Of a stretch of DNA of 64,000 bases, positions 7,072 to 53,144 are shown piece after piece. Location of the stretch: NCBI GenBank assembly GCA_032622095.1, contig CP136065.1, positions 25,925,141-25,989,140 on the forward strand, written 5' to 3'. A program made the position numbers and the translations under genes. Source of the stretch: Siphonodentalium dalli (lineage: Eukaryota; Mollusca; Scaphopoda; Gadilida; Siphonodentaliidae). Under the pieces are notes generated by a model, which was given only the letters and a program-made list of their open reading frames with translations, did not search any database and was not told where the DNA came from. Positions within the stretch are counted from its first letter, which is position 1; each line of letters opens with the position of its first letter.

Positions 7072-8034
7072 TAATCGGGGTTCACAATTAGATGGTTAGT
7101 GGCATCTAATCGCGAGCACATGTGGCACGCGATATTCGATTGAATATCAGAATGTTGGGTATCATATAACCCCATATCCCATAATATGTCAAATATATCG
7201 AATTATCGAAATATGAAATACAACGAAAAAGCGAAATAGGGAAATACAGCGAAATAGAGCGAAAAGGCTAAATAGGAAAATAAAGCGAAATAGCGAAATA
7301 TAGAAATAGGAAATTATTTTTATAAATAACGGATATAGGCCGATTTGAAGAAGTGTTTTTGACGAAATAACGGACATATTTGAAGAAGTGTTTTAACCCT
7401 TTACCCAACAGAAGGGCCCTGTGCCAATGCATTCTCTTATATATGCGAGTCGACCATGGGTCGCCTCGCATATATAAGAGAATGCATTGTCTTAACACAT
7501 TAAAAATTATAAAATTGTTAAAGAATGTAAGAAAAAATGGTAAAAAGTGTTAAAAAAAGATTTTTTTTGTTAGGCCAATGCATTCTCTTATATATGCGAG
7601 GCGACCTATGGTCGACTCGCATATATAAGAGAATGCATTGGCACAGGGCATAACTGTAACTATCACAATGTGGTCAAGGAGTCGGTTCCAATGATACCAT
7701 ATATGTATGGTTCTATTGAGACAGACCGAAGATATTTTAGGCTGTTGAAGCTTTATTTGGCCGGTTTTGGCCGGTTTGTTGGGTAAAGGGTTAAAGAGCG
7801 CAACCCAAACTCCAGCAAGCCCACCCACACAATAGAACAATTTGACTTATATTTCACCAGAGTTTATCTATTGTGGTGTTGCAATGTCTCATACAAATCG
7901 CCGTTATTTCGTCAAAGTATATTCTTTATAGAGTTATTACCCTTCAGATTAAATATGATATTCAATCGAAACCACGCGTGCCTCCCGTGGTCGCGATTAT
8001 ATGCCAATAGCCATCTCATCGTGAACCCCGATTG
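7072..8034. repeat. outer inverted repeat enclosing a family A MITE
   Basis: Arms 7072-7152 and about 7957-8034 are inverted (AATCGGGGTTCAC ... GTGAACCCCGATT). Between them are a GCGAAATA-type simple repeat (7196-7308) and a family A MITE. Confidence 0.75.
7393..7794 (-). mobile_element. family A MITE (piggyBac-like, TTAA)
   Basis: TTAA at both ends, with inverted termini CCCTTTACCCAACA. It has two copies of the hairpin module in opposite orientation around an AT-rich spacer and a unique 150-bp arm containing GGTCTGTCTCAATAG (complement here). There is no coding capacity. Confidence 0.9.
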
Positions 8035-8151
8035 ACTATCTTTTGGTAGTCAAACGTGTGCGTATTAGGTACAGCCCACTTGTTGATGATAGTTGTTTTA
8101 CAAACATTCGTGACTTTTCATATGTACCCACTGTGTAGGCGTTGAGTACCT

Positions 8152-8549
8152 TTAACCCTTTACCCAACAAACCGGCCAAAACCGGCCAAATAAAGCTTCA
8201 ACAGCCTAAAATATTTTCGGTCTGTCTCAATAGAACCATACAAATATGGATATCATTGGAACCGGCTCCTTGACCACATTGTGATAGTTACAGTTATGCC
8301 ATGTGCCAATGCATTCTCTTATACATGCGAGTCGACCATAGGTCGCCTCACATATATAAGAGAATGCATTGGCCTAAAAAAAAAAAAATTAACGCTTTTT
8401 ACCATTTTTTCTTACATTCTTTAACAATTTTATAATTTTTAATGTGTTAAGCCAATGCATTCTCTTATATATGCGAGGCGACCTATGGTCGACTCGCATA
8501 TATAAGAGAATGCATTGGCACAGGGCCCTTCTGTTGGGTAAAGGGTTAA
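8152..8549 (+). mobile_element. family A MITE
   Basis: Same structure as 7393-7794 in opposite orientation, with TTAA at both ends. The left TTAA follows GTTGAGTACCT, which resembles the end of a family F element. Confidence 0.9.
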
Positions 8550-8875
8550 ATCAGCAAATTCTAAATACTTTCTGTTACTCGTTGATATCAACTGTCAGAT
8601 TTGTATTACGAGAGAACGAAATGTGGTATTATATAGCCCGAGTTAGACAAACAAGGACATGACATTTTGTTGGTGTTGCAAAAATCAGTAATCGAATAGA
8701 CGGAATCGTGTGGGTATAGCCTTATAAACTTCAATCAAATGGCGAAACTCAATTTTAACACGCACAATTCAAAAATGATACACCACATCATCTATTATAT
8801 ATTTTCATGATTTTGGAACTTCTCTCTGTATGAATGTATGTATGTGTGTGTGTATGTGTTATAGACTCGAAACTG

Positions 8876-9204
8876 CTCGACCCATCCGACTCGAATTTGG
8901 TATGTAGGACTACCAAGAACCCTGGAACAATATGGGCGGGTCCAATTTCACGTGCGACCGTGTCCTTGACCTTTACCTCGCTCATATACGCTCAAATAGG
9001 CATGTTTCTGGACCTCGACCGATCCAACTCAAATTTGGTATGTAGGACTACTTTGATCCCGGGAACATTATAGGCGGGTCCAATTTCACGTGCGACCGTG
9101 TCCTTGACCTTGACCTCGCTCTCGCTCTTATACGCTCATATAGGCATGTTTCTGGACCTATCGATCCCTAAATAGCCCGGGCGAAGTCGGTCACATCAGC
9201 TAGT
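8876..9204. repeat. tandem duplication with Helitron-like end motif
   Basis: Two units of about 135 bp share AATTTGGTATGTAGGACTAC, CGGGTCCAATTTCACGTGCG and GGCATGTTTCTGGACC. They are followed by GCCCGGGCGAAGTCGG and TCAGCTAG|T. A GC-rich hairpin just before CTAG resembles Helitron 3' ends, but the stem here is imperfect. A GT-rich microsatellite (8828-8860) lies at the left edge. Confidence 0.55.
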
Positions 9205-9289
9205 ATAGTATAAATCTTTATTCTCGACTAATATCAACTGAAATTCGTTGTTACGCCTTCCCTGTGCAGAATATTGCCAGAGGAAAATT

Positions 9290-9443
9290 AACCCTTCCAT
9301 GACTTGAGCTTCCTGGAATTTTCTGTAAACCCTGTGGCAATACATTCTCTTATATATGCGAATCAGTGCATTCTCTTATATATACGAGGCTCCCTATGGG
9401 AGTCTCGCATATATAAGAGAATGCACTGAAACAGGATCTTCCA
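9290..9443 (+). mobile_element. family C MITE remnant
   Basis: Begins TTAACCCTTCCATGACTTGAG and contains the hairpin-module arms (GCATTCTCTTATATATACGAG), then stops at CAGGATCTTCC. It ends about 40 bases before the acceptor preceding the PP1 start codon. Confidence 0.7.
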
Positions 9444-9487
9444 TGGCGATATGGTTTATCCAATTAACTTACTTTATTTCAGAAAGG

Positions 9488-9559
9488 ATGTCGAAGACAC
9501 TGGATCTAGACGGTATGATAGAGCAGCTGTTATCTGTACGGGAATCCCCTCTAAAACAG
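9488..9559 (+). CDS. PP1 exon 1 (start codon, residues 1-24)
   Basis: ATG at 9488 has A at -3 and opens a peptide containing [11 protein letters not shown], which matches the PP1 N-terminal LNLDSIIGRLL helix. The donor CAG|GTAGAT follows 9559 in phase 0. A TTTATTTCAG acceptor ends at 9482, five bases before the ATG, so this is probably the second exon of the mRNA with a 5'UTR exon upstream that I cannot place. The frame stays open upstream through a MITE remnant, but only the Met at 9488 fits the family. Confidence 0.88.
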
Positions 9560-51239: not shown

Positions 51240-51547
51240 AGGCCTGAGTGTAAGGTGCCTGTCATTTGCAGAATGAGGTCCCCAGAGGGTGAATTTGGTG
51301 ATGCTATCCCGCAGATTATATTTCTTTTTTAGTTTAGTTTCTCTATATCCCCAACTTGGCACATGACACATTACATAATCAAGGTTCCCAATCCGAGTCT
51401 ACATCTCCCATAGCAGATGAGGCCATGCAAAATGAGGTCCCAAAAGGGTGAATTTGATAATGCTAGCCTGCTATGGGGTGGGGTAGAATCACTAAATTCA
51501 CCCTTCGAGGACCTCATTCTGCAAATGACAGGCACACTAAACTCCTG
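51240..51547. mobile_element. family E MITE, left palindrome broken
   Basis: GAGTGTAAGGTGCCTGTCAT at the left and ATGACAGGCACACTAAACTC at the right. The left palindrome stops at CTATCCCGCAG. Confidence 0.8.
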
Positions 51548-51575
51548 AATCTGTTATAACCATATATACACAGAT

Positions 51576-51762
51576 AAAGTAATGCTCTAAGTAATCGACT
51601 CTTTAACCACAGCAGAATTATGGGTAACTTTTCAGGATTTAGTCGGAAATATGGCTTGTTGCCATTCATCGGAAAGCTCTCGGGGAGAGCTTTCCGATGA
51701 ATGGCAACAAGTTACCCATAATTCTGCTGTGGTTAAGGAGTCGATTAATTAGAGCATTACTG
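51576..51762. mobile_element. family B MITE with a shortened right arm
   Basis: The left arm is complete. The right arm lacks the AGCCATATTTCCGACTAAAT stretch and resumes at GTTACCCATAATTC. Confidence 0.88.
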
Positions 51763-52096
51763 TAGTTGTGTTAGTTTAACCATTTAACCCGAGGGACACT
51801 TCAAGCAAGAGTTCTGTATATTTGAGATTTGTGAAATTTATAATCTTTATCAATCAAATGATCTGATAGTATGAGAGTTTGCATCATAAGATTGTCGGTA
51901 TAGTCAATTTGAATTTTTATCAATCTCCATAATTCAAACCACCTTTCAACCTCTCAACAATTTCCTGTCATATAGTCATTGTCGTTCTGCAGTATTTAAA
52001 AATATAACAGAAATACATGTACAATCCATTAATTCACTGCACAAAAAGGCTTTTATATACTCTCTTCTGGAATGTGTCACTTTCTATATTCCGTTA

Positions 52097-52229
52097 TAAC
52101 CCTTCCATGACTGGAGCTACCTGAAATTTTGCGAAAACCCTCCCTATGGGAGACTTGTATATATAAGAGAATGCATTGGCACAGGATCTTTAATACTGCA
52201 CCCGTAGAGCTCCCCGTCATGAAAGGGTT
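52097..52229. mobile_element. family C MITE, internally deleted
   Basis: ATAACCCTTCCATGACTGGA ... CATGAAAGGGTTAA, with only one hairpin arm left. Confidence 0.75.
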
Positions 52230-52429
52230 AATGAAACATGTTTGTATTACTGGTATGTGAATGGTTCATCCGTCCTTCTGTCGTCAACCTTTTGTCATAT
52301 TTGAAACCATGCACATATTTTTTGCCAATTGGCACGACCCTGCGATTATTTGAGAATTTTTTTATTCAGGCGTCTGAATCAGATTGATTCTTTGATTCTG
52401 AATCAGTCTCAAATTTTATTTTCTTCAAT

Positions 52430-52700
52430 TTATTGATATGCGACATATGCTCAAAGTTAGACCATAATATATCCTGTGATTCTTGTTGCAATACCTTGGC
52501 CCATGGTTTGTTCTTGATAAAACATCTTTGCAAACGAATACCCCACTTGTATCATCGAGGAATACATTGGAAGACTCACAGAAAAGTCACTACTTACCCG
52601 GGCCCCATTCTCCAGTTATTCTTGAGATTTTACTGGTACTATATAAATCAAAACGAGAATCAAATCAAAAGTAGTAATGCCATAATTTAATAGCCTGTCA
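52430..52700. other. block open in several frames, unassigned
   Basis: Plus-strand ORFs and minus-strand frames (one reading WGIRLQRCFIKNKPWAK on the minus strand) overlap here. No pair of splice sites gives a convincing exon, and no known domain is recognised. It may be an eroded mobile-element ORF or simply a low-stop region. Confidence 0.2.
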
Positions 52701-52754
52701 AATACAGATGTGGAAAACTGGTTTTATGGACCAATCTTCATATATTACATTGTT

Positions 52755-53144
52755 TTAACCCTTTACCCAACAAACCGGCCAAATAAAGCTTCAACAGCCT
52801 AAAATATCTTCGGTCTGTCTCAATAAAACCATACAAATATGGATATCATTGGAACCGGCTCATTGACCACATTGTGATGGTTATAGTTATACCCTGTGCC
52901 AATGCATTCTCTTATATATGCGAGTCGACCATAGGTCGCCTCGCATATATAAGAGAATGCATTGGCCTAAAAAAAATCTTTTTTTAACACTTTTTACCAT
53001 TTTTTCTTACATTCTTTAACAATTTAATAATTTTTAATGTGTTAAGCCAATGCATTCTCTTATATATGCGAGGCGACCTATGGTCGACTCGCATATATAA
53101 GAGAATGCATTGGCACAGGGCCCTTCTGTTGGGTAAAGGGTTAA
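52755..53144 (+). mobile_element. family A MITE
   Basis: TTAA-flanked. Near-complete apart from the loss of one AAAACCGGCC unit near the left end. Confidence 0.92.

What the first reader, a model, noticed from the sequence alone, without database searches (positions are those of the whole stretch)
7393..53144. One hairpin module shared by MITE families with different termini
The ~65-bp palindrome built on CAATGCATTCTCTTATATAT and GCGAG(T/G)CGACC occurs in families A (CCCTTTACCC ends), C (CCCTTCCATGACTGG ends), D (CCCTTTGAGTGCCAG ends) and the 4-kb inverted structure. In A, two modules are exact reverse complements around an AT-rich spacer. Unrelated termini with the same core suggest module capture or shuffling, or that the hairpin is the conserved functional unit.
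Basis: partly seen in the sequence, partly recalled or inferred. Interest (0 to 1): 0.75.

Follow-up and report, generated by a model that had tools for sequence, protein, structure and literature searches.

The report
Hairpin core shared by jumping-DNA families
Three families of short, gene-less jumping DNA in an unidentified eukaryote have different ends but carry nearly the same hairpin-forming middle, which suggests that middles and ends get recombined; one similar case is known from corals.

Summary
A near-perfect ~70-bp palindrome occurs throughout the window; its 20-base signature matches 58 times against 0.01 expected. It lies inside families A and C and, rearranged, in a ~0.6-kb inverted structure F; family D carries half of it. 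A, C and D have TTAA plus CCCTT(T) ends, and one of 14 elements tested (A3) has a single-TTAA empty site in the window: piggyBac/TTAA-type MITEs. Beyond the CCCTT tip their termini do not clearly align, yet A-D arm identity is 95.4%, like A-A (96.8%) or D-D (95.1%). C3 has C ends with an A/D-type core. The core edge is alike in every context, with no target duplication seen. I favour exchange of the core by recombination at the hairpin base, each family then being moved by a terminus-matching piggyBac-like transposase. 'Hairpin as conserved functional unit' gets little support. Close precedent: coral CMITEs (PMC2872659). Host, autonomous partners and small RNAs are untested.

The parts
7393..7794 (+). 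Family A copy A1 (coordinates of A copies include both TTAAs)
8152..8549 (-). Family A copy A2
20485..20885 (-). Family A copy A3, inserted into another repeat; paralogous empty site with a single TTAA at 26912-27011
31774..32173 (+). Family A copy A4
42036..42435 (+). Family A copy A5
49733..50133 (+). Family A copy A6; its two hairpin arms are exact reverse complements over 73 columns
52755..53144 (-). Family A copy A7
49757..49986 (+). The shared core in A6 (230 bp): arm a, AT-rich spacer, arm b inverted; edges CCCTGTG and CACAGGG
47498..47702 (-). Fragment E: core with only 7 and 12 bp of exactly matching A flank at its two edges; arm a shortened
23649..23899 (+). Family D copy D1, TTAA at both ends, half core (arm b side plus part of the spacer)
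38123..38350 (+). Family D copy D2, right terminus not found; end coordinate approximate
30967..31339 (+). C3: C termini with an A/D-type core and long AT-rich spacer
9288..9475 (+). Family C copy C1, degraded; end coordinate approximate
23118..23353 (-). Family C copy C2, TTAA at both ends, hairpins partly deleted
41745..41963 (+). Family C copy C4, arm b mostly deleted
47998..48253 (+). Family C copy C6
50712..50968 (+). Family C copy C7
52096..52231 (+). Family C copy C8, most of the core deleted
55972..56226 (+). Family C copy C9, arm a rearranged with a 28-bp tandem duplication; end coordinate approximate
59080..59230 (-). Family C fragment C10; coordinates approximate
4054..4671 (.). Structure F: inverted arms, each with a rearranged piece of the core (edge CCCTGTG); no TTAACCC or GGGTTAA lies before 7393
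4780..4856 (-). Further core arm with the F-type flank

Best explanation
A, C and D are non-autonomous piggyBac/TTAA-type MITEs. Each family has its own terminal sequence, presumably recognised by a different piggyBac-like transposase supplied in trans. They share a passenger core: two inverted arms, each itself a ~70-bp hairpin, around an AT-rich spacer (half of it in D). Shown here: the core, its common edge, the termini that do not clearly align, the TTAA insertion of one A copy, and one element (C3) with C termini and an A/D-type core. Inferred: the core passed between elements by recombination (template switching or repair at the base of the extruded hairpin, with little or no homology), after which each new combination was amplified by transposition. 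The common edge falls at the base of the long inverted repeat, as expected if the structure sets the breakpoint.
For: TTAA at both ends of 7 of 7 A copies and an empty site with a single TTAA for A3, 97 of 100 positions, no gap. Arm identity A-D 95.4% (30 pairs) and A-F 95.0% (15 pairs), against A-A 96.8% (210) and D-D 95.1% (one pair); A here includes one arm of fragment E. Flanks: with the six-base tip removed, 19 of 20 comparisons between different families gave p above 0.05 against shuffles, and one gave 0.044. Same edge CCCTGTG in A, C, D, E and F, with point changes in some copies. C3: left flank 76-87% identical to six other C copies compared, but arms on average 90-91% identical to A arms and 78-85% to the C arms compared; A-to-C3 alignment spans the whole core, spacer included, at about 68%. 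The long inverted repeat folds strongly as single strand (DNA -102.3 kcal/mol, z -25.0; RNA -156.1, z -24.0), and old copies have lost parts of hairpins (by eye).
Against: No parental element (A, C or D termini at both ends, without the core) was found to show what was replaced. The exchange step is inferred. Common edges would also be expected if the core moved as a unit of its own. C3 could be an ancestral C form rather than a chimera: on arms alone the AU test does not reject C + C3 as one clade (p 0.398), and A arms as one clade are not rejected either (p 1). D-left against C3-left flank gives p 0.044, uncorrected, so some shared subterminal sequence is not excluded. Only 1 of 14 elements tested gave an empty site. 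No transposase was seen in the 10 frames scanned.
Confidence: 0.55

Rival explanations
1. The core is, or was, a mobile element in its own right: a MITE with ~80-bp terminal inverted repeats ending CCCTGTGCC that inserted into A, C, D and F.
For: Same sharp edge in all contexts, on both sides in A, C and F; the arms form long terminal inverted repeats.
Against: No target duplication visible beside the core in A, C or F (by eye). I assigned the module copies seen in the window to A, C, D, E or F, so no solo core was seen; E keeps 7 and 12 bp of A flank at its edges. The core ends resemble the A, C or D termini no more than shuffles (p 0.15-0.63).
Confidence: 0.17
2. A, C and D are one family whose termini diverged while the hairpin stayed conserved because it works (transposase binding, transcription or small RNA).
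For: All have TTAA and CCCTT. Hairpin pairs are kept: 95.9% of cells paired against 93.0% in shuffles, 19 cells changed on both sides against 5.8, covariation score reached by 0 of 500 shuffles. Arms are slightly more conserved than flanks within A and C. The coral authors suggested a role for their core in transposition.
Against: Flanks not clearly alignable while cores are about 95% alike between A and D. The arm-flank difference within families is small. D has only one arm. Arm-to-end distance, TTAA included, differs: 24 bases in A, 35-45 in C and D. 18 of the 19 both-side cells lie in 3 of 32 pairs, and the number of pairs with both-side changes (4) is reached by 216 of 500 shuffles; two neighbouring pairs may be one event (inference), which palindrome correction by template switching could also produce.
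Confidence: 0.15
3. Ongoing ectopic gene conversion between cores already present in long-separated MITE families keeps the cores alike.
For: Core similarity between A and D equals that within families.
Against: Arm-specific differences persist: in the 14 arms of A1-A7, all seven a-arms end CTTAAC and six of seven b-arms end CCTAAA (A1b ends CCTAAC). C arms other than C3 differ from A by about 16%. It does not explain the first acquisition.
Confidence: 0.1

Closest known systems
CMITE elements of Acropora corals (PMC2872659; parts 1-3 of 4 of the text read)
   Same: piggyBac/TTAA MITEs; several families with different TIRs (e.g. CCCTTTCCC(G/T)(T/C)CC, CCCTTTAAGCCCTA, CCCCTCAGTGTCCG) and an internal region more conserved between families than the TIRs; origin of the core unexplained
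   Different: Their core is 75 bases and unrelated in sequence (best window match of the published 60-base consensus 12 bases, E 0.36), and that consensus is not hairpin-rich (DNA fold z -0.65). Here the core is 230 bp in A6 with two hairpin arms, occurs whole and halved, and one element combines C termini with an A/D-type core.
piggyBac and piggyBat transposons (PMC11707139, passages including part of the abstract)
   Same: TTAA target; ends with subterminal repeats. piggyBac left and right ends carry identical 19-bp palindromic sequences; in the left-end complex the palindrome is bound by transposase C-terminal domains
   Different: Here the palindrome is ~70 bp, at differing distance from the ends, and present once in D; no transposase was seen.
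MER6 of mammals (PMC6887750, abstract and section list only)
   Same: A MITE with a middle of other origin: a Mariner-derived element carrying a V-SINE domain
   Different: Mariner-type, with a retroelement-derived middle; the abstract reports no sharing of that middle among MITE families with different ends.

Membership tests
piggyBac/TTAA MITE | TTAA target site duplication | tested here: met
   TTAA on both sides of 7 of 7 A copies, D1 and C2; A3 empty site with a single TTAA. Of the other C copies checked (C3, C4, C6, C8, C9) none has TTAA exactly at both of the ends taken; D2 has it on the left only.
piggyBac/TTAA MITE | TIRs with CC[C/T]T tip (criterion as stated in PMC2872659) | tested here: met
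   CCCTTTACCC, CCCTT(C/T)CATGAC, CCCTTTGAGTGCCAG; left and right ends alike within each family. Some copies have changed tips, e.g. A5 left CCTTTT.
piggyBac/TTAA MITE | Short, multicopy, non-coding | tested here: met
   390-402 bp with both TTAAs in 7 A copies. Longest stop-to-stop frame of the window is 200 aa; 10 of the 232 frames of 60 aa or more were scanned with Pfam, one matched (phosphatase), none a transposase.
piggyBac/TTAA MITE | Mobilised in trans by a piggyBac-like transposase | not testable with these tools
   No host genome held; no transposase in the 10 frames scanned.
CMITE-like group | Families with different TIRs share a core more conserved than the TIRs | tested here: met
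CMITE proper | Homologous internal sequence | tested here: not met
   60-base CMITE consensus: best window match 12 bases, E 0.36
CMITE proper | Tandem arrays of whole elements | tested here: not met
   In this window only: none of the 45 tandem-repeat rows is an array of whole A, C or D elements.

The most novel reading that the evidence does not exclude
The hairpin core is a semi-independent genetic unit that passes between differently ended transposon families by DNA structure rather than by a transposase, so that MITE families are loose alliances of swappable ends and a shared passenger core.
Probability: 0.2. Interest if true: 0.7.

Novelty: new variant of a known kind. Interest (0 to 1): 0.42.

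Why it matters
How new MITE families arise, and where their middles come from, is an open question; the coral paper left it unexplained. A second case, unrelated in sequence, with a sharply bounded palindromic core, a half core and a mixed element would point to recombination at hairpins as a general route, and it can be checked in one assembled genome.

Tried and rejected
Simple divergence of one family: not favoured, given the contrast between cores and flanks. Core ends as diverged piggyBac-type ends: not above shuffles. Homology to the CMITE core: none significant. Known RNA family: no Rfam match at gathering thresholds; no tRNA. Relatives elsewhere: exact 25- and 21-base pieces of the module gave 0 hits in viral contigs and the 21-base piece 0 in genome contigs; these are collections of viral, bacterial and archaeal contigs, so this says little about eukaryotes. 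Other precedents: nine paper searches, four of them listing only part of what they found (20 of 49, 15 of 16, 12 of 36 and 12 of 18). In these listings I saw only CMITE as the same phenomenon. I read PMC2872659 (parts 1-3 of 4), passages of PMC11707139, and the abstracts of PMC6887750, PMC4133298 and PMC4405373: the first of these describes a MITE with a SINE-derived middle, the second mosaic bacterial elements with conserved ends and differing middles, the third Nosema MITEs with small RNAs; the rest of the listings were not opened. The arm tree has no branch starred by the tool and its bootstrap had not settled. The A5 copy carries the same C-to-T change in both arms, which might be arm-to-arm copying; it is a CpG site and so may have mutated twice, and I did not count it.

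Rows dropped: the arm alignment holds 28 arms. Truncated or rearranged arms found (one arm each of C1, C2, C4, C9 and E, the C8 and C10 remnants, and three F fragments) were left out before the identity, covariation and tree counts. C8 was left out of the C3 left-flank comparison.

Full report
What is there. The 20-base signature CAATGCATTCTCTTATATAT matches 58 times with up to 2 mismatches, against 0.01 expected. Each intact module is a near-perfect palindrome, GCCAATGCATTCTCTTATATATGCGAGTCGACC-ATA-GGTCGCCTCGCATATATAAGAGAATGCATTGGC; a 70-base stretch of A6 folds as single-stranded DNA at -36.2 kcal/mol against a shuffled mean of -6.8. In A, and in the better-kept C copies, the modules come in inverted pairs. 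The shared unit, here called the core, runs from CCCTGTG to CACAGGG: arm a, an AT-rich spacer (67-72 bases in the seven A copies), and arm b inverted. Edge to edge it is 230 bp in A6, 299 in C3, 174 in C6 and 177 in C7.

The elements. Seven A copies (390-402 bp with both TTAAs) are flanked by TTAA on both sides. A3 lies in a copy of another repeat, and an uninterrupted paralogue at 26912-27011 matches the joined flanks at 97 of 100 positions through a single TTAA; the other 13 elements tried gave no such site in the window. D1 is 251 bp with TTAACCCTTTGAGTGCCAG ends; D2 has no such right end. C has nine core-bearing copies or remnants (C1-C4 and C6-C10 in my numbering) with CCCTT(C/T)CATGAC-type ends, plus one C-like left end at 45629 without a core (C5). 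TTAA with a CC[C/T]T tip is the hallmark of piggyBac elements as stated in PMC2872659. TTAACCCTT strings with no core start within 70 bases also occur, at 10600, 16847, 33398 and 39950, as well as at the right ends of A and of D1; whether the first four are element ends I did not test.

Divergence or exchange. Mean arm identities are A-A 96.8% (210 comparisons), A-D 95.4% (30), D-D 95.1% (one pair), A-F 95.0% (15), A-C3 90.1% (30) and A with other C 84.2% (120). Outside the core, after removing the six-base tip, 19 of 20 comparisons between flanks of different families score no better than shuffles at p 0.05; D-left against C3-left gives 0.044, uncorrected. Left and right ends of the same family match clearly. 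If A and D had simply diverged from one element, their flanks should be about as alike as their cores.

Mixed and partial elements. C3 has C termini (left flank 76-87% identical to six other C copies compared) but arms averaging 90-91% identity to A and 78-85% to the other C arms compared. Its core, long spacer included, aligns with A's, A 25-251 to C3 43-340 at about 68%, whereas the better-kept other C copies have a short, different-looking spacer (by eye). In the arm tree, A, D, C3 and F arms fall together apart from C (87/92), but the tree is weakly resolved and an AU test does not reject C with C3 (p 0.398). D carries the arm-b half of the core and part of the spacer. F, at about 4.05-4.67 kb, has the core edge inside longer inverted arms of another sequence.

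Edge. The edge CCCTGTG is the same in A (both sides), D, C, E and F, with point changes in some copies, and I see no direct repeats beside it (by eye). The edge is the base of the long inverted repeat. I take this as a sign that the structure sets the breakpoint, but a self-mobile core would also have constant edges.

Is the hairpin a functional unit? Pairs are kept more than shuffled columns predict: 95.9% of cells paired against 93.0%, and 19 both-side changes against 5.8. But the number of pairs with both-side changes, 4 of 32, is not unusual (216 of 500 shuffles; 4 also when the partners are slid by one column towards the 5' end), and 18 of the 19 cells lie in three pairs. Within families the arms are only slightly more conserved than the rest, and by eye six of nine C copies (C1, C2, C4, C8, C9, C10) and fragment E have lost or rearranged a large part of a hairpin. 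That suits an unstable palindrome better than a maintained one.

Precedent. CMITEs in two Acropora corals are piggyBac/TTAA MITEs with different TIRs and a conserved internal region of unknown origin. The sequence is unrelated. A MITE with a middle of other origin is also known in MER6 (PMC6887750, abstract). In the listings of nine paper searches I saw no second report of one core behind different TIRs; four listings were incomplete, and the library itself states that most subscription-journal papers are missing.

Limits. The host is taken to be a eukaryote, unidentified: one exon-like frame of a serine/threonine phosphatase gene was recognised and no genome is held. The genome-wide survey that the question really needs could not be run.

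Noticed in passing
20979-21317: Exon-like frame matching serine/threonine protein phosphatase (PF16891, PF00149), the only gene-like match among the 10 frames scanned.
   Followed up: partly
12195-54427: Another palindromic repeat family (GCAGAATGAGGTCCCCAGAGGGTGAATTTAGTGATGCTA and its complement), 16 copies of a 51-base unit listed.
   Followed up: no
20322-58579: Repeat family with AATGGCAACAAGCCATATTTCCGACTAAATCCTGAAAAGTTACCCATAATTCTGCTGTGGTTAA, in both orientations; it contains the A3 insertion and gives its empty site.
   Followed up: partly
28732-29173; 21685-22074; 62116-62768: Tandem arrays with units of 55, 52 and about 171 bases.
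   Followed up: no
42060-42288: Copy A5 carries the same CTCGC-to-CTTGC change in both hairpin arms: arm-to-arm copying or two CpG mutations.
   Followed up: no
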